Source: Labilithrix sp. (GTDB lineage Bacteria; Myxococcota_A; Polyangia; Polyangiales; Polyangiaceae). Taken from it: a DNA stretch of 64,000 nucleotides. Shown in pieces: positions 52,306 through 64,000 of the stretch; the stretch's first letter is position 1, and each line of letters starts with the position of its first letter. The stretch lies in contig JAHBWC010000027.1 in the NCBI GenBank assembly GCA_019637225.1, forward strand, positions 1 through 64,000, written 5' to 3'. The translations under genes were made by a program, and so were the position numbers. The notes beneath the pieces are model-generated. The model was not told the origin of the DNA and did no database searches. It saw only the letters and a program-made list of their open reading frames with translations.

Positions 52306-53118
52306 GTGCGGCCCTCCCCTCCCGCGCTCTTCGTCGTGGCCGCGCTCGCGCTCGCGGGCGGGCTCGGCGCCATCGCGACGCGGACGGCCGAGGGCGCCGC
52401 CGACGGCGGGCCGGCGCTCCCGAGCGACGCGGCGAGCTTCGGCTTCGTCGTCCAGAGCCACGCGAACGGCGTCCCGCTGCTGGCGTCGACGAAGCCCTTC
52501 TCGCTCCCGCTGGCGAACGGCCCCGTGCACGGGGTGCCGCCGACCGGAGATCGCCTCGCGCGCGGCGCCGCGATCGTCGCGCGCGAGCTCGGGCGTTACC
52601 CGAGCGCGTTCCTTCGCGGGGTGCACCTCGCCGGGGTCGTGCTCGCGGACGATCTCGCCGAGAACGAGATGGCGATCCCCTCGCTCCCCAACGTCGGGGG
52701 CCTGCTCCTCCTCGACGTCTCGAGCGTCGAGAAGGACCTCGTCCGGAGCCTCCATCACGAGGTGTTCCATTTCTTCGATCTCGCCGACGACGGACACGTC
52801 GCGCCCGATCCCGAGTGGAGCCGGCTGAACCCGACCCGCTTCGTGTACGGATCGGGAGGCCGGACGCTCCGAGGTGCGTGGGCCGCGCACCCCGTCGATG
52901 ACGCGCCCGGCTTCGTGTCGGCGTACGCGACGAGCGGCGTCGAGGAGGACAAGGCCGACACGTTCGCGTTCGCCGTCGCCCGCGCCGAGGAGCTACGGCC
53001 GAAGATGAAGTCCGACGCCGTGCTTCATGCCAAGGTCGCCGAGCTCGCGCGCCGCGTCGCCCTGCTCGACGCCGACTGCGCACGCCGCCTCGGCCTCGAG
53101 GGTCTTCTGGCCCCCTGA
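52306..53118 (+). CDS. Secreted HExxH-type metalloprotease-like protein
   Basis: 270 aa from a GTG, with an N-terminal signal (SPPALFVVAALALAGGLG). LVRSLHHEVFHFFDLADDG carries HExxH (zinc ligands His and Glu). GVEEDKADTFAF supplies a likely third Glu/Asp ligand about 75 residues later, as in gluzincins. DDGHVAPDPEWSRLNP is Asp/Trp-rich. The earlier ATG at 52198 gives no signal peptide and is rejected. It precedes the propeller lipoprotein gene by 25 bp, so they may be cotranscribed. Confidence 0.8.
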   Translation: MRPSPPALFVVAALALAGGLGAIATRTAEGAADGGPALPSDAASFGFVVQSHANGVPLLASTKPFSLPLANGPVHGVPPTGDRLARGAAIVARELGRYPSAFLRGVHLAGVVLADDLAENEMAIPSLPNVGGLLLLDVSSVEKDLVRSLHHEVFHFFDLADDGHVAPDPEWSRLNPTRFVYGSGGRTLRGAWAAHPVDDAPGFVSAYATSGVEEDKADTFAFAVARAEELRPKMKSDAVLHAKVAELARRVALLDADCARRLGLEGLLAP

Positions 53119-53143
53119 GCCCGACGCCGGCTATGCTCAGGCG

Positions 53144-54154
53144 ATGTCTTGGCGGGGTTCTTCGACCGCGCGCCTCCGGCGTCGACTCGTGTTCACCGCG
53201 GCGCTCGGAGCCGCGGGCTGTGGGCTCGGCGTCGTCGGCAGCGAGAGCGCGCCGCCGAGCGACGTGGACGCAGGGCGCGAGGGCGGCTTCCGCGATCCCT
53301 CCCCGCCGGTCGACGCGCCGGTGACCGACGCGCCCGTCCTCTGCGACGGCGCGCCGGCGGACACCCCGGACAACTGCGGATCGTGCGGTCGCGACTGCGC
53401 CGGCGGGGCGTGCGTCGCGGGCCGCTGCGCCGCGCTCGATCTCCTCGTGCTGCCGCCCGGTCAGACCGTCCGCGCCGTCGCCGTCAACAGCACGAACCTC
53501 TACTTCATCGACAACATGTCGCGGACGATCGTTCGCGCGGAGCTCGACGGATCGACGCCGTCGAACATCGTCACGACGAGCCTGCCGGGGTCGCAGCTCG
53601 CCGTCGACGACACGTACCTCTGGTACACCACCACCGGTCTGCGCCGAACCTCGGCGACCGGCACGGACGAGGTCCTCCTCGCCGACAACGTCGGCGGGTG
53701 CGTCGCGATCGATCCGGACAAGACGCGGGTCTACGCCGCCGACTTCGACGGCGATCGCATCGTCGCCGTCCCCTACGGCGGAGGCCTCGCGACCGATCTC
53801 CTGACCGCCGACGCCGGCGTCAGCTTCCCGTGGGGCGTCGCGGCGAACGCGACCCACATGTTCTTCACGACGTCGGGGAACGACCCGGGGCGCATCTTGC
53901 GGCGTCCGAAGGCGGACGACAGCGGCACGACGACGGTCAAGGTCGCGCAGAAGAACCCGAACTGCCTCGCGTTCGACGAGGCCGGGCTCCTCTACTGGGT
54001 GACCCACAACGACGGCGTCATCCACCGGAGCAAGGCCGACGGGAGCGACGAGGTGGTGCTCGCGACCGATCAGGCCGAGGTCACGCAGGTCGCGATCGAC
54101 GAGAAGTTTCTCTACTGGGGCACCGGCAACAAGGTGCGCCGTCTCGTTCGCTGA
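53144..54154 (+). CDS. Beta-propeller lipoprotein (DUF5050-like)
   Basis: 336 aa from MSWRGSSTARLRRRLVFTAAL; an Arg-rich twin-arginine-like start leads to AAGCG. A short Cys-rich module (LCDGAPADTPDNCGSCGRDCAGGAC) is common in Myxococcota lipoproteins. The propeller follows, with repeats such as NLYFIDNMSRTIVRAELDG, LWYTTTGLRRTSA, RVYAADFDGDRIVAVPYGGG, LLYWVTHNDGVIHRSKADG and FLYWGTGNKVRR. These are the S/T-L-Y-W/F-x-D blades of DUF5050. Surface or envelope location, ligand unknown. Confidence 0.85.
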   Translation: MSWRGSSTARLRRRLVFTAALGAAGCGLGVVGSESAPPSDVDAGREGGFRDPSPPVDAPVTDAPVLCDGAPADTPDNCGSCGRDCAGGACVAGRCAALDLLVLPPGQTVRAVAVNSTNLYFIDNMSRTIVRAELDGSTPSNIVTTSLPGSQLAVDDTYLWYTTTGLRRTSATGTDEVLLADNVGGCVAIDPDKTRVYAADFDGDRIVAVPYGGGLATDLLTADAGVSFPWGVAANATHMFFTTSGNDPGRILRRPKADDSGTTTVKVAQKNPNCLAFDEAGLLYWVTHNDGVIHRSKADGSDEVVLATDQAEVTQVAIDEKFLYWGTGNKVRRLVR

Positions 54155-54175: not shown

Positions 54176-55339
54176 TCAGTCGGCCGCGTGCTCGAGCTGA
54201 CGCTCGAGCGTGAGGCGCTCGGCCTCCTTGCGGACGCGCCGGTAGCCGAGCAGGTGAAACACGTCGAGGCGGTAGAGCCGCGTCGCGCGCTCGTCGACGA
54301 CGAGCTTCGACGGCCTCGCGGGATCGCGCGCGATACCGGGGAGCAGATGGAGGAAGCGGTCGAGCTTCATGTGGCGGAGCGCCTCCGACACGCGCATGCG
54401 CGTCGCGCTCACCTCGCGGCCCCAGAAGAAGCCGTCGGCGCCCTGTCCCTGGTAGAGCGGGAGGATCACCATGCCGTCCTTCGGCGCGCGCACCTTGCCG
54501 GCGCGGCTCTTCGCGAGGAGCTGGCCGGCGCGCGCGCGCGCGAGGTTCTGGAAGCCCGGCTCCATCACGAACTCGTCGGCAGCCGTGATGGCGTGGCGCG
54601 AGACGACCTCCATCACGCGCGGGAGATCGCCGCGGCGCCGCTCGAGCAGCGCGTGCGCGGCGCCGGTCTCGGTGAGGAGCCCCGAGCCGAACAGGCCGGC
54701 GGACTCCGCGCCGAGGAGGACGACCGCCTCGAGGTTGTCGACCGAGCCCGGATCGTCGTGCTGACCACCCTCGACGCCGAAGGTCACGCAGCCCTGCGTG
54801 GTGAAGTACGCGGAGAGGACGCCGTCGACCTGCTCCTCGAGCCCGATCACGAGCGGCAGCGGGATCGCGCTCGCGAACTTGCGCTGGCGAAGCGTGTCGC
54901 CGAACAGGATGAACGGGAGGCCGTGCGCGCTCGTCGTGTGGAGATCGACGAGGTAGACGGGGCCGCGCGCGCGGGCGATGGCGGCGCGGATGGCGCCGAG
55001 GAGCTCGAGCTGCTCGTGATCCTCCGCGTCGAGCGCTCCGCCCGCGGCGGCGCGTGCCTCGAGGTCCGCGACGCGCGCGGGCGTCCAGACGCGGTTCATG
55101 TCGCGCTCGCGGTAGCGAACGCCCTGACGCATCGCGCCGAGGTTGCCGGCGAACGCGACGAGCTCGCCCATCACCCTGCCCTGCCGGCGCGCGAGCGTGG
55201 CGAGGACGCGCCGGACGGCGCCGACTCCCGCGCGCTCGTTGCCGTGGATCCCGGCGACGACGATCAGCGTGGGGCCGGCGGCGTCGCCGACGACGCGTCC
55301 AATCTCTCGCCCCTCCGGCAAATCGTGACCGTCGCTCAT
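54176..55339 (-). CDS. Succinylglutamate desuccinylase/aspartoacylase-family (M14-like) amidohydrolase
   Basis: 387 aa from MSDGHDLPEG with GAGGAGG eight bases upstream. Zinc ligands of the M14 fold: GIHGNERAG (His32, Glu35) and YLVDLHTTSAHG (His134). The RERDMNR motif (77-83) binds carboxylate. The C-terminal RMRVSEALRHMKLDRFL part is typical of ASTE/AspA proteins. The family hydrolyses N-acyl amino acids or C-terminal amide bonds. It is last in the minus-strand operon with the GCS2-CBS and esterase genes, 5 bp after the former, so its substrate is probably a product of that pathway (inference). Confidence 0.9.
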   Translation of the reverse strand: MSDGHDLPEGREIGRVVGDAAGPTLIVVAGIHGNERAGVGAVRRVLATLARRQGRVMGELVAFAGNLGAMRQGVRYRERDMNRVWTPARVADLEARAAAGGALDAEDHEQLELLGAIRAAIARARGPVYLVDLHTTSAHGLPFILFGDTLRQRKFASAIPLPLVIGLEEQVDGVLSAYFTTQGCVTFGVEGGQHDDPGSVDNLEAVVLLGAESAGLFGSGLLTETGAAHALLERRRGDLPRVMEVVSRHAITAADEFVMEPGFQNLARARAGQLLAKSRAGKVRAPKDGMVILPLYQGQGADGFFWGREVSATRMRVSEALRHMKLDRFLHLLPGIARDPARPSKLVVDERATRLYRLDVFHLLGYRRVRKEAERLTLERQLEHAAD

Positions 55340-55344
55340 CGAGA

Positions 55345-57477
55345 CTACCTCCTCGCGTCCTCTGCTTGCGCCGTCGGCTCGGTCGTCTTCTCCCGCGTCG
55401 CGCTCCTCGCGGAGGGCTCCTCGGTCGACTCGAGCGCGCCGAGCTTCTCTTCGAGCAGATCGGCGGCGATGCCCATGAAGTCTTCCTCCATGACCATCGC
55501 CACGATGCGGCCATCCTTGACCACAGGCAAGCACCCAATGCGGTGCCGGCGCATCAAGGCGATCGCAGCGAGGGTGGACGTCTCGGGCGACACCGTGACG
55601 AGGTCTCGCTTCATGACCTCGCCGACCGTCACATTTGCCGGGGGCGGCGTGCTCCCGAGGCGCGTGAGGTCCGCGAGCAGCGACGTGGAGCTGTCCGAGC
55701 GCGGCAGCATGGCTGAGCTCTCGCTGCGCGGGAGCATCGAGGAGCTCTCGGTGCGGGCGCCCGGGAGGTTCGCGAAATGACGCAGCACGGCGCGCGACGT
55801 CACGAGTCCGACGAGCTTGCCGCTCTCATCCTCGACGGGCAGGTGGCGGATGCGCTCCCAGCTCATGATGTCGGCCGCGAGCTCGACCGGATCGTTCGGG
55901 TGCACGATGAGCAGATCGGTCTGCATGTACTGCGAGACCTTCGCCCAGCCCGTCCGGCGGGCCGGCACCTCGTCGAGGCGCGCGCGCTCCCACTCCGCGA
56001 CCGGACGCGCCGTGTCCTGCCGCGCGATGGTCGCGGCGACGAGGGCGGCGAGGTGCTCGCCCGGCGTGCCCTTCGGCTTCATGTCCGCGAGCGAGCGCAG
56101 CGCCCAGCGCGAGCCGGTGTGGAGCGTACGGACGCGCTTGTCGACGACGCCGAGGTACCGCTGCGCGTCGGCGGGCTCGACGCCCGCGCGCGCGAGGCCG
56201 GCCTCGGCGATGGGCAAGAGGCGGTCGAGGACGAACGGCTGCGCGATCACCTCCTCGCCGTCGAGCCAGATGAAGCGGGCGGCGAGACCCTCGCGCGCGG
56301 CGTTGTAGAAGTTCGCCTGCGCCTGGTCGAAGTCCATCCGCGACGGGAGGTCCTCGATCGTCACCGAGAGCTCGCGCATCAGGCCGATCCAGAACGCGGC
56401 GTTCGCGACCTCGTCGATGATCGACGGGCCCGACGGGAGCGCGCGGAGCTCGATGCGGAGGTGCGGCTTGCCGCTCGGGGAGACGCCGTAGCACGCGCGG
56501 TTCCAGCGGTAGATCGTGCCGCTGTGGAGACGCAGGGCGCGGAGCTCGGGGACGCCGCCCTCGTCGAGGACCTTGAGCGAGTCCTCGTCGACGCTCATGC
56601 CCACGAGCGGGCGGAAGCGCGTGACGTTCTCCTTGAAGATGCCGAGCGCGCCGCCGCGCGTCGCCCAGCCCTTGCCGAACGAGACGCGCGGGGCGTCCTG
56701 CCGGGCGTGGAGGGTGCGCGTGCGGATGTCGCACGACTGCTCGAAGAGCGCGATGCGCGTCTCCGCCCAGAGGCGCTTGCCGAGGAGCGTCGGGGAGTTG
56801 GTCCCGATCGCGAGCGTCGGCGCGAGGACGAGCTGCGCGACGTCGTAGTCGTGACCGAAGCGGCTCGGGTCGAGCGACTGAAGGTGAACTTGGAAGCTCG
56901 CGTTGCACGCCTCGAACATGAGCGAGTCGTGCTTCGCGACGAGCTCGTCGAGGCCCTTGATCGAGATGTCGTAGCCGTCCCCCTTCGCCGCGCTCATCAC
57001 GCGGTTCAGCGTGAGGTAGCGGGGGTTCGGCACCATGTTGTCGAGCGAGAGATCGGTCCGCGCGAGCGTGGGGAGGATGCCGGCGAGCACCGGCTGGACG
57101 TGGAGCTCGGCGGCGGCCGCCTGGACGCGGGCGTAGAGCGACGTGAGCTGCGCCTCGAGCCGCGCGAGCCCTCCGCCCTCGAGCGACTGCGGGTCGGCGT
57201 TCATCTCGAGGTTGAAGAGCCCGAGCTCCGTCGTGAAGTGCGGATCGGCGACCTTGTCGATCAGCTCGAGCGCCGTCGGCGACGCGTTGTAGGCGCGATC
57301 GACGAGGAACATCTCCTGCTCGGCGCCGATCGTCGAGATCCCCGCCTCGAACCTGCCCTCCGCCAGCATCCGCTCGAGCGCGCGGAGATCGCTGAGGAGC
57401 GCGCGCACGTAGCGCGCGCGTTCGGGGCCTTCGAGCTCGCCGGCGGACGTCTTGTCGTTCCTAGGACCGCCTTCCAT
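55345..57477 (-). CDS. GCS2-family carboxylate-amine ligase fused to tandem CBS domains
   Basis: 710 aa. The N-terminal GCS2 (glutamate-cysteine ligase type 2, COG2170) domain has TIGAEQEMFLVD (49-60), LNLEMNADPQSLEG and CNASFQVHLQ, and HLRIELRALPSGPSIIDEVANAAFW. About residues 520-575 and 615-670 are two CBS domains (MQTDLLIVHPNDPVELAAD..., VGEVMKRDLVTVSPETSTLAA...), a fused Bateman module that usually senses adenosyl nucleotides. A Ser-rich SSSML-type repeat sits between them. It joins a carboxylate to an amine with ATP. The stop of the upstream esterase gene nearly abuts its start (one base apart). Confidence 0.93.
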   Translation of the reverse strand: MEGGPRNDKTSAGELEGPERARYVRALLSDLRALERMLAEGRFEAGISTIGAEQEMFLVDRAYNASPTALELIDKVADPHFTTELGLFNLEMNADPQSLEGGGLARLEAQLTSLYARVQAAAAELHVQPVLAGILPTLARTDLSLDNMVPNPRYLTLNRVMSAAKGDGYDISIKGLDELVAKHDSLMFEACNASFQVHLQSLDPSRFGHDYDVAQLVLAPTLAIGTNSPTLLGKRLWAETRIALFEQSCDIRTRTLHARQDAPRVSFGKGWATRGGALGIFKENVTRFRPLVGMSVDEDSLKVLDEGGVPELRALRLHSGTIYRWNRACYGVSPSGKPHLRIELRALPSGPSIIDEVANAAFWIGLMRELSVTIEDLPSRMDFDQAQANFYNAAREGLAARFIWLDGEEVIAQPFVLDRLLPIAEAGLARAGVEPADAQRYLGVVDKRVRTLHTGSRWALRSLADMKPKGTPGEHLAALVAATIARQDTARPVAEWERARLDEVPARRTGWAKVSQYMQTDLLIVHPNDPVELAADIMSWERIRHLPVEDESGKLVGLVTSRAVLRHFANLPGARTESSSMLPRSESSAMLPRSDSSTSLLADLTRLGSTPPPANVTVGEVMKRDLVTVSPETSTLAAIALMRRHRIGCLPVVKDGRIVAMVMEEDFMGIAADLLEEKLGALESTEEPSARSATREKTTEPTAQAEDARR

Positions 57478-57478
57478 G

Positions 57479-58237
57479 TCAGACCTGCGCCGCCGCTTCG
57501 GCCTTCTTGGGCGCCGTCCAGTCGTCGAGGTACTTCGGCAGCTTGGAGCGCCACGTGACCCAGTCGTGATCGACGTTGCCCCAGGACTCGACCCAGTTCG
57601 GGATCCCCTTGTCGCCGAGCACCTTGCCCATGCGGAAGCTCTCGCCGATGTTCTCCCACTTGCCCTCGCCCGAGGCGAGGTGGATGTAGCGCGTGCGGAG
57701 CACGTCGAGGTGCAGGCCCGAGAGCGTCGGCACGAAGTGGAGCGGCGACGACACGCGGTAGTAGTCGGTCGGCTGCGGGTGATCGATGAACCGCAGGAGC
57801 TCGTAGCTCCCGCTCATCCCGAGCGCGCGGTGGAACAGATCGGGGAAGCGGCAGGTCACCGCCACGGCGTGGAACGCGCCGATGGACGCTCCCGTCGTCC
57901 AGATCGGGATCTCGGGCGACCTGCAGTCCGTGCGGATCGCGGGGACGACCTCGTGCTTCACGTACTGGTGGAACTGGTTCATCACGTACATGCGGTGCTC
58001 GACCGACTGCTGCTTGTCGAAGAACACGCGACCCGCGACGCTGTCGCAGGAGTAGACCTTGATGCGCCCCGCGGCGAGCAACGGCTCGAGCACGTGGATC
58101 ATCTTGAAGCGCTCGATCTCCTCCGCGTCGCCGCCCGCGGTCGGGAAGACGAGCACCGGCTGACCGGAAAACCCCCAGCGCGCGAGCGTCGTGTCGCACT
58201 GCAAACGAGACGAGTACCAGGAAGACTTCTCGAACAT
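57479..58237 (-). CDS. Alpha/beta-hydrolase esterase (COG4947-like)
   Basis: 252 aa from MFEKSSWYSSRLQCDTTLARWG. GQPVLVFPTAGGDAEE is the oxyanion side. The nucleophile elbow is TTGASIGAFHA (Ser118), and catalytic His224 lies in NVDHDWVTWR. The family is an uncharacterised putative esterase, recurrent with GCS2 and ATP-grasp ligases. It is first in the minus-strand operon esterase - GCS2-CBS - M14. The intergenic 239 bp upstream is shared with the divergent Ser/Thr kinase, so both may respond to common control. Confidence 0.88.
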   Translation of the reverse strand: MFEKSSWYSSRLQCDTTLARWGFSGQPVLVFPTAGGDAEEIERFKMIHVLEPLLAAGRIKVYSCDSVAGRVFFDKQQSVEHRMYVMNQFHQYVKHEVVPAIRTDCRSPEIPIWTTGASIGAFHAVAVTCRFPDLFHRALGMSGSYELLRFIDHPQPTDYYRVSSPLHFVPTLSGLHLDVLRTRYIHLASGEGKWENIGESFRMGKVLGDKGIPNWVESWGNVDHDWVTWRSKLPKYLDDWTAPKKAEAAAQV

Positions 58238-58476
58238 GTTTCTGTCCCCGTCCTCTCGTGGACGGACCCTCCAACCCCAGTCGCAGCTCCAAACCGAAGA
58301 GCTTCGTCCCCGTCGTAGCGGCGCGCGCGTCCGGTCGCAAGTAAACCCTGAAACCCCGCGCATTTGAGGGCTCTCGACGGGCTCCCGGTCCGAGCCGGGG
58401 CGCCTCCGGGTTGCGATCCGATGTCCCCGCACGCGGCTGCGAGACGCCCTCGGGCTCGTGTAGTCTTGCGGCGGGC

Positions 58477-60528
<2,052 letters not shown>

Positions 60529-60570
60529 CGCGGCGCCGCGGGCTCTCCGGCGGCGCCGCAGCGATGCGCG

Positions 60571-61029
60571 TCAGCCCTTCAGCGTCGCGATGTCGTCGAG
60601 CACGGTCTTCTCGTGCCCGTTCGGATCGACCTTCGCGTAGACCTTGCGGACGACTCCGCTCGGATCGACGAGGAACGTGGTGCGGTCCCAGTAGAGCGTG
60701 CCCTTGTACTCGGACTGCCCGACGCCGAGCGCGCCGAGGAGCTTCGTCTCCGGATCGGCGAGCAGCTCGATCGTGAACGAGAACTTGTTGCAGAAGTCCT
60801 TGTGGGACTTCGCGTCGTCGGCGCTGAGGCCGACGACGACCGCGCCGGCGGCGTCGTAGTCTGCCTTCGTCGCGGTGAACGACTTGCCCTGGATGGTGCA
60901 TCCGGGGGTGTCGTCCTTCGGGTAGACGTAGAGCACGAGCCACTTGCCCGCGTAGCTCGCGTTCGTCTTCTTCTGCGCGTCTTGGTTCTCGAGGCTGAAC
61001 TCGGGGAGCTTCTGTCCGACGTCGATCAT
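60571..61029 (-). CDS. bcp: PrxQ/BCP-type thiol peroxidase
   Basis: 152 aa from MIDVGQKLPEFSLENQDA. The peroxidatic Cys44 is in KDDTPGCTIQGKSF. The segment DDAKSHKDFCNKFSFTIELLAD (Cys80) is a candidate resolving position. TTFLVDPSGVVRKVYAKVDPNGHE ends the fold. It reduces peroxides with thioredoxin. It is 65 bp after the ATP-grasp gene on the same strand, so may be part of the operon. Longer in-frame starts read as low-complexity. Confidence 0.94.
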   Translation of the reverse strand: MIDVGQKLPEFSLENQDAQKKTNASYAGKWLVLYVYPKDDTPGCTIQGKSFTATKADYDAAGAVVVGLSADDAKSHKDFCNKFSFTIELLADPETKLLGALGVGQSEYKGTLYWDRTTFLVDPSGVVRKVYAKVDPNGHEKTVLDDIATLKG

Positions 61030-61094
61030 GGCGCCGGATCTACCACGACCGCGCCGGGGAGGGACGCGGAGTCGCCTGCTGCATGCGTCCGCAG

Positions 61095-62345
61095 TCAGGC
61101 GCGCTTCGACGTCGCCTCTTCCGACTTGCGCCAGTCCTGGATGCGGCCCCAGAAGTGCTCGGTGAACTTCTCGTGCTCGTGGGCCGGGAAGAGCGCGGCG
61201 ACCTTCTGGCGGACGGCGTCCTTCGCCGCGTCGGTGCCGAAGAAGCTCCACGCGACCTCGTCGAGGTGCGACAGGTGCTTGGCGCTGAACTCCTCGAAGC
61301 GCGCCGTCTCGAAGCGCTCGTCGGCGAGCTTCGCGTAGCGATCGAGCTTCTCTTCGAACGGGATGTCCGTGTCGGCGATCGCGATGAACGGCGCCCAGTC
61401 CTGGTTTTTCCGCATCTTGCGCTTCGTCGCGGCGCAGAACACCGACCAGCGGACGTAGGCCTTCACCATCCACGGGAAGTGCCAGTGCAGCGACGTCACC
61501 TGCGAGTCGGGGCACGGGTTGGCGTAGTCGATCGGGTACCAGATCCCGTCCTTGCGGAGCGCCTCGCAGGAGTTGAACTCCCAGTCGAAGAACGCGTTGA
61601 TCGTGAGCGTGACCTTGCGAAGGTGCGCCTCTTCTTCCTTCGAGATGAACCCCTGCTGCGTCGTGTAGCGCTCGTGCAGCGGCGCCGACGGATCGTAGAG
61701 CACGCAGTGCGTCTGCGGGCCGAAGCCGATGCAGCGGACGAAGCGATCGAAGTCGTGGATCGCCTGCTGGACGTGCATGACCGACTTTCCGCTGTCGTCG
61801 TAGGCCTTCCACATCCCGTCGGCGTCGTCGACCTTCGTGACGCCGCGCCAGCCGCCGCCGTCGTACGGCTTCATGAACATCGGCCAGCCGAGGCGCTTGC
61901 CGAGGAGGCTCACGTCGAAGAGCTTCGCGTGCCGCGAGAGCGTGAGCTTCAAGTCCGGGTTCGGCTCGTACGTCTTCGGCGGGATCATCCACGTCTCGGG
62001 GATGCGCATCCCGAGGCGCATCATCGCGCAGTACGTGGTGTGCTTCTCGTTGGCCTGGACGCTCCACGGGTTGTTGAAGACGTAGAGGTCATCCATGAGG
62101 ATGGCCTTCTTTATCCACTCGCGGCTCGTGTGGTACCAGTGCGTCAAGCGGTCGACGACGAGGTCGTACTTGCAGCCCTGGCGCAGATCGAACGGCTCGA
62201 TCATCACGCGCTCGACGGCGAAGCGAACGGTGTCGCCCTCGACCGGGACCTTGAGGTCGAGCTCCTTCATGATCGCTTCGAAGCAGAGCGGCCAGCAGAT
62301 GTCCGCGCCGAGCGACAGGCCGATGTGACGTGTGACTTCTCCCAT
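61095..62345 (-). CDS. ATP-grasp ligase of the GCS2/esterase locus
   Basis: 416 aa. The ATP-grasp fold is visible: WPMFMKPYDGGGWRGV (Lys159 and Gly-rich loop), FDWEFNSCEALRKDG (Asp254, Glu256, Asn258) and WYPIDYANPCPDS (Asp273, Asn276), which give the metal/nucleotide acid residues. The N-terminal part (EVTRHIGLSLGADICWPL) has the preATP-grasp look. It catalyses ATP-dependent carboxylate-amine joining. The Fes-like esterase gene ends 43 bp upstream in the same operon. Substrate not known. Confidence 0.88.
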   Translation of the reverse strand: MGEVTRHIGLSLGADICWPLCFEAIMKELDLKVPVEGDTVRFAVERVMIEPFDLRQGCKYDLVVDRLTHWYHTSREWIKKAILMDDLYVFNNPWSVQANEKHTTYCAMMRLGMRIPETWMIPPKTYEPNPDLKLTLSRHAKLFDVSLLGKRLGWPMFMKPYDGGGWRGVTKVDDADGMWKAYDDSGKSVMHVQQAIHDFDRFVRCIGFGPQTHCVLYDPSAPLHERYTTQQGFISKEEEAHLRKVTLTINAFFDWEFNSCEALRKDGIWYPIDYANPCPDSQVTSLHWHFPWMVKAYVRWSVFCAATKRKMRKNQDWAPFIAIADTDIPFEEKLDRYAKLADERFETARFEEFSAKHLSHLDEVAWSFFGTDAAKDAVRQKVAALFPAHEHEKFTEHFWGRIQDWRKSEEATSKRA

Positions 62346-62387
62346 GTTCCTCTTCCCCTGCTCCCCAGTCTCGTGCCTCGTGCCGCG

Positions 62388-63569
62388 TTACTCGTAGATG
62401 AACATCAGCGGGCCGGGGAAGAGCCACGAGAGCCCTTCACGCAAACGATCCCGCCAGTTCTCCCAGTTGTGACCGTCGCGCGACTCGACGAACTTCACCT
62501 GCATGCCCGTAGCGTCGAGTAGCGGGACGAGCGAGCGATTTTCGTAGATGAGCGACTCGTAGACGCCACAGCTCATGAAGATGCGCTCGCTCACCGGCAC
62601 CGGATTCGCGCGCACCTGGTTGACGAACTCGACCACCTTGTCGAAGAGCGGGCCGCGGCGGTTCGTCTTGCCGATGTCGGTGAACGCGAACGAGCCCGAC
62701 TGGAGGAGCAGCCGGCCCCACACGCCGGGGTACCGGTAGGCCGTCGAGAACGCCGCGACGGCGCCGAAGCTCGCGCCCATGAGGCAGCGCGCCTGCGGGC
62801 GGTCGATGATCGGCAGCCGGTGCGTGAGGTCCGGCAGGAGCTCCTCGGTGAGGAAACGCGCGTGCTGCTCGTCGTTCGGGTACTCGCGGATGCGGTCGGG
62901 CGAGTCGGTGAACGCCACGATCATGTCCGGGATCTCGAGGCGCTCGATCAGGTTGTCGAGCACCGTCTTCATCACCGCGAAGTTCAGGTAGTCCCGGCCG
63001 TCGTGCACGACGACGAGCGGGTAGAGCCGCGTCTTGCGGAAGCGCGCCGGCAGGTAGATGTGGCCGCTCCGCATCCCGCCGAACGCCTTGCTGTGGAAGC
63101 CGAACGGCTCGAGCAGGCCGGAGCGCGAGGTCGGGTCGGGACGGACCCAGTCGGGGACCGCGTAGCCCTCTCCCTGGAGGACGGAGTTCGCGCCGAACGG
63201 ATCGCGCGCGCGGTTCGGGTTCCGCGGGTCCTCGATCCACTCGCTGCGATCGGAGCGGTGGACCTCGAACTTGTACTCGACGCGCGAGCCGTGGGGGATG
63301 TCGAGCGTGAGGTACCAGAGGTCCGTGTTCGGGATCCGCGCGAGGGCGCTGCCCGACTCGAGGCCGAAGATCCAGTGGCGGAGGCTCACGCCGTTCGCCT
63401 CGCCGCGCCAGACGAACGTGACCGCCGGCCCCTCGACGATCGGGATGGCGCGCCCCTCGAGGAAGCGGTCGACCTTGGCCGCGTCGGGCCGCGAGTCGAT
63501 GAGCTGCTGGATCGCCGACTTGGGGGCGGCGCGCATCGACGCCGAGCTCGGCTTCATCGGGCGCTTCAT
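62388..63569 (-). CDS. Enterochelin-esterase (Fes)-like alpha/beta hydrolase
   Basis: 393 aa from MKRPMKPSSASMRAAPKSAI; overlaps the upstream gene by ATGA. The N-terminal CBM48/Fes-like beta domain (about 45-145: VTFVWRGEANGVSLRHWIFG, YLTLDIPHGSRVEYKFEV) is followed by an esterase domain. There HIYLPARFRKTRLYPLVVVHDGRDYL, nucleophile elbow MGASFGAVAAF (Ser267) and His367 in SRDGHNWENWR are found. The catalytic His motif resembles that of the COG4947-like esterase in the next operon (VDHDWVTWR). It should hydrolyse esters or amide-linked groups of a secreted or small-molecule product. Confidence 0.88.
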   Translation of the reverse strand: MKRPMKPSSASMRAAPKSAIQQLIDSRPDAAKVDRFLEGRAIPIVEGPAVTFVWRGEANGVSLRHWIFGLESGSALARIPNTDLWYLTLDIPHGSRVEYKFEVHRSDRSEWIEDPRNPNRARDPFGANSVLQGEGYAVPDWVRPDPTSRSGLLEPFGFHSKAFGGMRSGHIYLPARFRKTRLYPLVVVHDGRDYLNFAVMKTVLDNLIERLEIPDMIVAFTDSPDRIREYPNDEQHARFLTEELLPDLTHRLPIIDRPQARCLMGASFGAVAAFSTAYRYPGVWGRLLLQSGSFAFTDIGKTNRRGPLFDKVVEFVNQVRANPVPVSERIFMSCGVYESLIYENRSLVPLLDATGMQVKFVESRDGHNWENWRDRLREGLSWLFPGPLMFIYE

Positions 63570-64000
63570 GAGCCAAGCCCCGCCGCGCCCGAGACCTCGA
63601 AGCGCGTGTGCATGCCGTCGTCGCGCAGCGCGAGCACGCCGGACGGGTTCTTCGGGCCCCGCTTGAGCCACGTCACGCGCGAGCGGGCCGGCAGCGCGAG
63701 GCAAGTCGCCGGCGCGAAGCGGCGCGCCATGACCTGGATGCGCTCGCGATCGTCGAGGCGGAGGCGGAACTCCGGCTGCGGGAGGCACACGACGTCGCCG
63801 ACGAGCGCGAGTCCCTCGTCGAGGACCTCGGCGGCGCCGGGCCCTTGCGGCGGCGAGTGGTGGAAGAGGACGACACGCTCGCTCACCGCCATCGCGCCGC
63901 CGCACCACGCGAAGACGACCTTGCCGGCCGTGAGCTTCGCGACGTCGAACAACCGGAGGCGGTTGAGGAGCGACGCGACGTGACCGCCCGCGATCGCGAT
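63566..64000 (-). CDS. Peptidase S51/glutamine-amidotransferase-fold hydrolase (5' part outside window)
   Basis: 144 codons are visible and the frame is open at the right edge, so the start lies beyond 64000. GGHVASLLNRLRLFDVAKLTAGKVVFAWCGGAMAVSERVV resembles the nucleophile region of cyanophycinase/dipeptidase-E-like enzymes, where WSAGAM is usual; here the nucleophile position is Cys (AWCGGAM), as in class-I glutamine amidotransferases. LFHHSPPQGPGAAEVLDEGLALVGDVVCLPQPEFRLRLDD is also family-like. A TTG at 63952 would give a 128-residue stub and is rejected. It overlaps the Fes-like gene by ATGA. Confidence 0.75.
   Translation of the reverse strand: MAIAGGHVASLLNRLRLFDVAKLTAGKVVFAWCGGAMAVSERVVLFHHSPPQGPGAAEVLDEGLALVGDVVCLPQPEFRLRLDDRERIQVMARRFAPATCLALPARSRVTWLKRGPKNPSGVLALRDDGMHTRFEVSGAAGLGS

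What the first reader, a model, noticed from the sequence alone, without database searches (positions are those of the whole stretch)
54176..64000. Two-operon GCS2-CBS / ATP-grasp amidoligase locus with dedicated hydrolases around a Ser/Thr kinase
Two ATP-dependent carboxylate-amine ligases (GCS2 fused to CBS, and an ATP-grasp) are encoded beside an M14 aspartoacylase-like amidohydrolase, an S51/GAT-fold hydrolase, two esterases with nearly the same catalytic-His context (DGHNWENWR, NVDHDWVTWR) and a PrxQ. Tight spacing (ATGA overlap, gaps of 1, 5 and 43 bp) argues for coordinated function. The families are known to occur in predicted amidoligase clusters, but this exact composition with CBS fusion and a divergent membrane kinase is unfamiliar to me. 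Inference: it makes and recycles a short peptide or amide-linked compound under nucleotide sensing and phospho-control.
Basis: partly seen in the sequence, partly recalled or inferred. Interest (0 to 1): 0.88.

Follow-up and report, generated by a model that had tools for sequence, protein, structure and literature searches.

The report
Amide-ligase cluster tied to glycogen synthase
A bacterium carries a conserved set of about ten uncharacterised enzymes that probably build and recycle a small amide-linked compound inside the cell, and in several phyla the set travels with its own version of the enzyme that makes glycogen, which hints at an unknown link between sugar and nitrogen storage.

The parts
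54176..55339 (-). AstE/aspartoacylase-like M14 amidohydrolase (387 aa); accessory; other loci have FGase instead
   Evidence: Pfam PF24827 E 4e-19; motifs GIHGNE and DLH; follows GCS2-CBS within 400 bp in 19 of 80 loci
55345..57477 (-). GCS2-like carboxylate-amine ligase fused to two CBS domains (710 aa); accessory, Myxococcota-biased
   Evidence: Pfam CBS E 3.7e-27, GCS2 21.3 bits at cut-off 21; hhalign to two YbdK-type GCS2 over 296 columns, prob 88.5, E 2.7e-6
57479..58237 (-). Esterase1, PF00756 alpha/beta hydrolase (252 aa)
   Evidence: Pfam E 4.7e-6; GASIG elbow here, GxSxG-type in 54 of 63 homologues; within 400 bp after ATP-grasp A in 54 of 80 loci
58477..60528 (+). Ser/Thr kinase with C-terminal hydrophobic stretch; lineage insertion, not part of the conserved set
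   Evidence: Pfam Pkinase E 4.2e-39; between ATP-grasp A and Est1 in only 2 of 80 loci
60571..61029 (-). PrxQ-like peroxiredoxin; lineage insertion, not part of the conserved set
   Evidence: AhpC-TSA E 8.9e-32; found in only 2 of 80 loci
61095..62345 (-). ATP-grasp A, RimK-like fold plus helical C-terminal domain (416 aa); core
62388..63569 (-). Esterase2, enterochelin-esterase/CE1-like hydrolase with E-set-type N-terminal domain (393 aa); core
   Evidence: Pfam Esterase E 6.3e-18 and Enterochelin_N 29.2 bits; PDB 2b20 E 1.4e-13 and CE1 esterases, one with a CBM48 domain; GASFG-type elbow in 76 of 77
63566..64000 (-). S51/cyanophycinase-fold hydrolase, continues to contig position 64531 (321 aa); core

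Best explanation
This is one conserved cytosolic pathway that makes and recycles an amide- or peptide-linked small molecule and is functionally tied to alpha-glucan (glycogen) metabolism. Shown here: recurrent clustering of the RimK-like ATP-grasp A, ATP-grasps B, B2 and C (B closest to L-amino acid ligases), esterases 1 and 2, the cyanophycinase-fold hydrolase, and a separate clade of glycogen synthase; GCS2-CBS plus an M14 or FGase amidohydrolase is an add-on seen mainly in Myxococcota. Inferred: the B/C ligases condense amino acids, ATP-grasp A and GCS2-CBS extend or cap them with ATP, the CBS pair senses adenylates, the S51-like and M14/FGase enzymes cleave amides for recycling, and the two PF00756 enzymes move or cleave an ester, possibly between the product's carboxyl group and a glucan hydroxyl. 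The product is probably an intracellular carbon/nitrogen reserve or a decoration on an alpha-glucan.
For: S51, Est2 and ATP-grasp A together in 76 of 80 loci, with short gaps. GlgA in the held DNA (up to 10 kb each side) of 46 of 80, in the same direction just before ATP-grasp B in 28, divergent from it in 10; of 31 loci with full flanks 20 have it. This genome has 3 GT5 genes in 8.2 Mb, so under 1% of such stretches would hold one by chance (my arithmetic). 41 of 42 linked GlgA rows fall in one clade, SH-aLRT 100, with this genome's two other GlgAs outside. In 31 genomes searched for both, all 14 with ATP-grasp A have clade GlgA, against 3 of 17 without. GlgC near 9 and MalQ near 5 of 80 loci, one locus with GlgP-GlgB-GlgA-GlgC alongside. 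GlgA matches E. coli glycogen synthase over residues 1-485, E 3e-90. ATP-grasp B's best PDB hit is an L-amino acid ligase, E 2.6e-16. Crude hydropathy shows no membrane-type stretch in the cluster proteins except the kinase.
Against: No substrate or product evidence exists. The GlgA link is not universal: 34 of 80 loci lack it in the DNA held (11 of these have full flanks; in one of them, L058, GlgA lies just beyond), and only 4 of 20 further, mostly distant Myxococcota loci have it. In 6 of those 20, ATP-grasp A stands without S51 and Est2. Two genomes keep the GlgA clade without ATP-grasp A (G026, G055), and G003 has only an 80-residue piece of it on another contig. Proximity could reflect co-regulation, not chemistry. 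The S51 nucleophile is Cys here and Ala, Thr or Gly in 8 of 76, so hydrolysis is not certain. The 80 loci are the closest of 339 and are related to one another.
Confidence: 0.42

Rival explanations
1. A diffusible intracellular dipeptide or gamma-glutamyl amide (osmolyte, thiol-like or ophthalmate-like compound). The glycogen synthase is a neighbour through shared starvation regulation only.
For: L-amino-acid-ligase-type ATP-grasps, GCS2-CBS, amidohydrolases; no GlgA in the held DNA of 34 of 80 loci.
Against: A separate GlgA clade follows the cluster through four phyla, often as a same-direction neighbour with short gaps; two esterases are hard to place in a pure amide pathway.
Confidence: 0.28
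2. A protein-tagging system: RimK-like ATP-grasp A adds amino-acid tails to a protein and the S51-like and M14 enzymes trim them.
For: RimK heads the fold list; M14 enzymes remove polyglutamate tails in eukaryotes (recalled).
Against: No tag or substrate protein showed up among recurrent neighbours, but only ORFs of 90 aa or more were compared; the BacD-like ligases and GlgA stay unexplained.
Confidence: 0.12
3. One reading: two operons under phospho-control by the kinase with a redox arm by PrxQ.
For: Kinase and PrxQ sit between the two gene blocks in the window and in two close relatives.
Against: Not at that place in 78 of 80 loci (some of them cut by contig ends); ATP-grasp A and Est1 adjoin in 54.
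Confidence: 0.05
4. A cyanophycin-like amino-acid storage polymer system.
Against: ATP-grasps A, B and C are proteins of 408-445 aa with no Mur-ligase domain hit, unlike CphA; the rest of the genome was not searched for CphA.
Confidence: 0.08

Closest known systems
Predicted amidoligase clusters (Iyer et al. 2009, Mol Biosyst; recalled, paper not held)
   Same: ATP-grasp and GCS2 ligases encoded with peptidases and amidohydrolases
   Different: I could not check whether this exact set was described there; the glycogen synthase clade, four ATP-grasps and the GCS2-CBS fusion are the distinctive points
YbdK-type GCS2 / ATP-grasp A' / Est1-like clusters (L150, L151, L163)
   Same: ATP-grasp A relatives at about 30-35% identity beside a GCS2 gene (L151, L163) or an Est1-like esterase (L150, L151)
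   Different: GCS2 there is the YbdK/PRK13515 kind without CBS; no S51, Est2 or GlgA match in the stretches held
RimK and LysX/ArgX ATP-grasp ligases
   Different: No NCBIfam hit for this protein; extra helical C-terminal part
Cyanophycinase and peptidase E (S51)
   Different: Long helical insertion (about residues 64-173 of the model); Cys instead of Ser at the nucleophile in the window
Bacterial glycogen synthase GlgA (GT5)
   Same: Full-length homology; KTGGL, SRLAWQKG and SRYEPCG here
   Different: Separate cluster-linked clade beside two other GlgAs in the same genome

Membership tests
ATP-grasp superfamily (ATP-grasp A) | ATP-grasp fold | tested here: met
ATP-grasp superfamily (ATP-grasp A) | conserved nucleotide Lys and metal-binding acid/Asn | tested here: met
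   K159, D273 and N276 invariant in 41 rows; stricter text patterns matched 67 and 62 of 80; residue roles assigned by analogy
RimK family | passes a RimK family model | tested here: not met
   no NCBIfam hit at E 0.001; only distant relatives hit rimK_fam, below its cut-off
Plain glutamate-cysteine ligase (GshA) | passes a GshA equivalog model | tested here: not met
   only TIGR02050 at 22.4 bits, cut-off 176.4; a separate TIGR01436-type protein, 447.6 bits against a cut-off of 463.15, on another contig
GCS2 superfamily | GCS2 domain homology | tested here: met
   Pfam 21.3 bits at cut-off 21, no single stretch passing alone; hhalign prob 88.5, E 2.7e-6; borderline but consistent
Peptidase S51 | S51 fold | tested here: met
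Peptidase S51 | Ser nucleophile at the SAGA-type elbow | tested here: not met
   AWCGGAM in the window; Ser in 53, Cys in 13, Ala/Thr/Gly in 8, pattern missed in 2 of 76 homologues
Cyanophycin system | CphA synthetase with ATP-grasp and Mur-ligase domains | tested here: not met
   no Mur-ligase hit in ATP-grasps A, B and C; cluster only, B2 of this genome and the rest of the genome not tested
Glycogen synthase GlgA | full-length GT5 homology and catalytic motifs | tested here: met
   E 3.3e-90 to 2qzs over 1-485; three motifs present here; in 44 linked homologues the patterns matched 41, 37 and 35
Glycogen synthase GlgA | uses ADP-glucose and elongates glucan | not testable with these tools
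   needs an enzyme assay

The most novel reading that the evidence does not exclude
The cluster makes a new kind of storage or protective polymer: an alpha-glucan, built by a dedicated glycogen synthase, that carries amino acids or short peptides put on by ATP-grasp and GCS2 ligases and moved on and off by two esterase-fold transferases, so that one polymer stores carbon and nitrogen together.
Probability: 0.14. Interest if true: 0.9.

Novelty: new variant of a known kind. Interest (0 to 1): 0.6.

Why it matters
A set of enzymes that recurs together in at least four phyla, with no membrane-type protein in the conserved set by a crude test and no transporter among the recurrent neighbours I identified, looks more like unknown core metabolism than a one-off natural product. 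If the glycogen link is chemical, it joins carbon and nitrogen reserves in a way that I did not find in the papers I could search. It also gives a handle for tests: a complete genome that I infer to be Sandaracinus amylolyticus, and Enhygromyxa salina by title, carry most of the set.

Tried and rejected
Rejected: kinase and PrxQ as parts (2 of 80 loci). Rejected: GCS2-CBS as plain GshA. Rejected: anti-phage system; PADLOC matched none of the seven cluster proteins tested, and the kinase matches many kinase models there, which says little. Tried without yield: for 9 orphan GCS2-CBS loci, no other gene family was shared with three or more of the loci; in the plasmid collection no record covered 80% of GCS2-CBS. 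Recurrent long antisense ORFs (families 7, 9, 12) were set aside as probably spurious because they overlap cluster genes; they were not tested further. Some text patterns were poor tests: the second Est1 pattern missed the window itself and 34 of 63 rows, and the ATP-grasp C loop pattern matched 9 of 26; I do not use them.

Papers: ten searches (the first and the last three of the strict ones gave 0-1 papers, others longer lists) showed nothing in titles and abstract starts that describes this set. The library lacks most subscription journals. Passages only were seen of PMC2824669 and PMC5010890; no paper was read whole.

Failed runs: file name; time limit; redone smaller. In one search I scanned the wrong strand of L001; searches corrected it. 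One search was a recount for this report.

Full report
Observation. The genes reported are in the window, with the spacing claimed but for one base. The contig is 80,127 bases long; I fetched 50,000-80,000 and examined ORFs and cluster matches there. Beyond the window lie the rest of the S51-like gene (63566-64531), ATP-grasp B (64614-65840) and ATP-grasp C (67464 to about 68690), all on the minus strand. On the plus strand are GlgA (65969-67444), between B and C, and a fourth ATP-grasp, B2, from about 68.8 kb (47% to a Gammaproteobacterial B2). Coordinates past 64000 are contig positions.

Is it conserved? A scan of genome contigs with an alignment of nine ATP-grasp A proteins found 339 relatives; the best 80 were kept with up to 10 kb of flank. 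Of 80: ATP-grasp A 80, Est2 77, S51-like 76, Est1 63, ATP-grasp B 59, GlgA 46, GCS2-CBS 42, C 26, B2 25, M14 21, FGase 14, a kinase anywhere 13, GlgC 9, MalQ 5, PrxQ 2 (before B2 was a query, gave C 27). Only 31 of the 80 have full flanks, so the counts are lower bounds. Record titles name Myxococcota, Acidobacteria, Planctomycetota, Gammaproteobacteria and one Eisenbacteria bin. Frequent neighbour pairs within 400 bp: S51>Est2 76, Est2>A 71, A>Est1 54, B>S51 43, Est1>GCS2-CBS 41, GlgA>B 28. The window's two blocks are therefore best read as one ancestral operon, split by kinase and PrxQ in this lineage (window, L057, L058).

Order-wide test. In 144 genomes, GCS2-CBS matches of 43% or more over most of the protein (one a fragment) occur in 45, and of 55% or more in 27. 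ATP-grasp A at 64% or more occurs in 37, including all 27 (Fisher p 3e-21, not corrected for kinship). Of the 27 pairs, 18 lie within 10 kb, 2 lie about 37 and 54 kb apart on one contig, and 7 are on separate contigs (my count). Of the 18 genomes with the weaker GCS2-CBS, 12 lack a strong ATP-grasp A; the 9 such neighbourhoods that I read showed no cluster genes. In the wider phylum, the profile finds ATP-grasp A or a distant relative in 77 of 235 genomes. Twenty of those neighbourhoods, mostly distant, held Est1 14, Est2 14, S51 13, B 11, B2 9, C 8, GlgA 4, FGase 3, GCS2-CBS 2, GlgC 1; in 6 of 20 ATP-grasp A stood without S51 and Est2.

The glycogen link. The linked GlgA is glycogen synthase by full-length homology, with three motifs present here; the same text patterns matched 41, 37 and 35 of 44 linked homologues. 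The genome has three GT5 genes. A tree of 79 rows puts 41 of 42 cluster-linked rows in one clade of 67 (SH-aLRT 100), with both other GlgAs of this genome outside; the exception is L124 of Enhygromyxa, next to GlgC (quick method, no bootstrap, some long branches outside the clade). In 31 genomes searched for both, clade GlgA occurs in 14 of 14 with ATP-grasp A and 3 of 17 without: G026, G055, and G003, which has only an 80-residue ATP-grasp A piece. In G026 and G055 no cluster gene lies near GlgA, and in G005 GlgA is not near the cluster. GlgC, MalQ and, in L133, GlgP-GlgB-GlgA-GlgC lie beside the cluster. This is the strongest clue to function, but it is association only.

The proteins. ATP-grasp A has no Pfam hit even at E 10; its AF2 model matches RimK best, with a helical part of about 100 residues after it. 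The S51-like protein (model of the L058 homologue) matches cyanophycinase and peptidase E with a helical insertion. Its nucleophile position is Ser in 53, Cys in 13 and another residue in 8 of 76; the window has Cys. Est2 resembles enterochelin esterase and CE1 esterases, one described as having a CBM48 domain. ATP-grasp B resembles L-amino acid ligases. M14 and FGase never occur together (21 and 14 of 80 loci), which suggests that one replaces the other, though many loci are truncated. By crude hydropathy only the kinase has a clear membrane-type stretch; signal peptides were not tested by a dedicated program.

A related, perhaps older arrangement. Distant ATP-grasp A relatives (about 30-35%), often two per genome, occur beside an Est1-like gene (L150, L151) or a YbdK-type GCS2 (L151, L163). 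The ATP-grasp A, GCS2 and Est1 association may therefore be older than the CBS fusion.

Interpretation. Shown: recurrent set, fold classes, separate GlgA clade, lineage-specific kinase and PrxQ. Inferred: amide synthesis and recycling in the cytosol, energy sensing by CBS, ester chemistry by Est1 and Est2, coupling to an alpha-glucan. Not shown: any substrate, product or phenotype. Amidoligase clusters as a kind are known (recalled from Iyer et al. 2009, not held), so I file this as a new variant.

Possible hosts. G012 is a single contig of 10,327,335 bases; the Sandaracinus amylolyticus genome paper gives 10.33 Mb (PMC5010890, passages), so I infer they are the same. It carries the set in three places within about 80 kb. 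L124 is titled Enhygromyxa salina SWB007.

Noticed in passing
63566-64531 (S51-like) and homologues in L057-L136: The nucleophile position of the S51-like protein is Cys in the window's lineage, Ser in 53 of 76 homologues and Ala, Thr or Gly in 8.
   Followed up: partly
L057-L136: M14 (21 loci) and FGase (14 loci) never occur in the same locus, which suggests replacement of one amidohydrolase by another.
   Followed up: partly
L051-L054, L156, L158, L160, L162, L164: GCS2-CBS genes at about 43-47% identity stand apart from the cluster; no other family was shared with three or more of these loci.
   Followed up: partly
L151:399-7129: Compact distant cluster: two ATP-grasp A relatives, YbdK-type GCS2, Est1-like esterase and a 418-residue protein without Pfam hit that looks ATP-grasp-like by eye.
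   Followed up: partly
L200 and L201 (G026, G055): Two small, near-complete genomes of the same genus keep the clade GlgA but have no ATP-grasp A match and no cluster gene near GlgA.
   Followed up: no
L056:8720-11155: A second, CBS-free GCS2-like gene in this genome (contig 135, 39% identical) lies beside an M14-like match at 43% identity.
   Followed up: partly
53027-54154: Plus-strand ORF whose product looks like a lipoprotein with a repeated, beta-propeller-like sequence, beside the cluster's end; judged by eye only.
   Followed up: no
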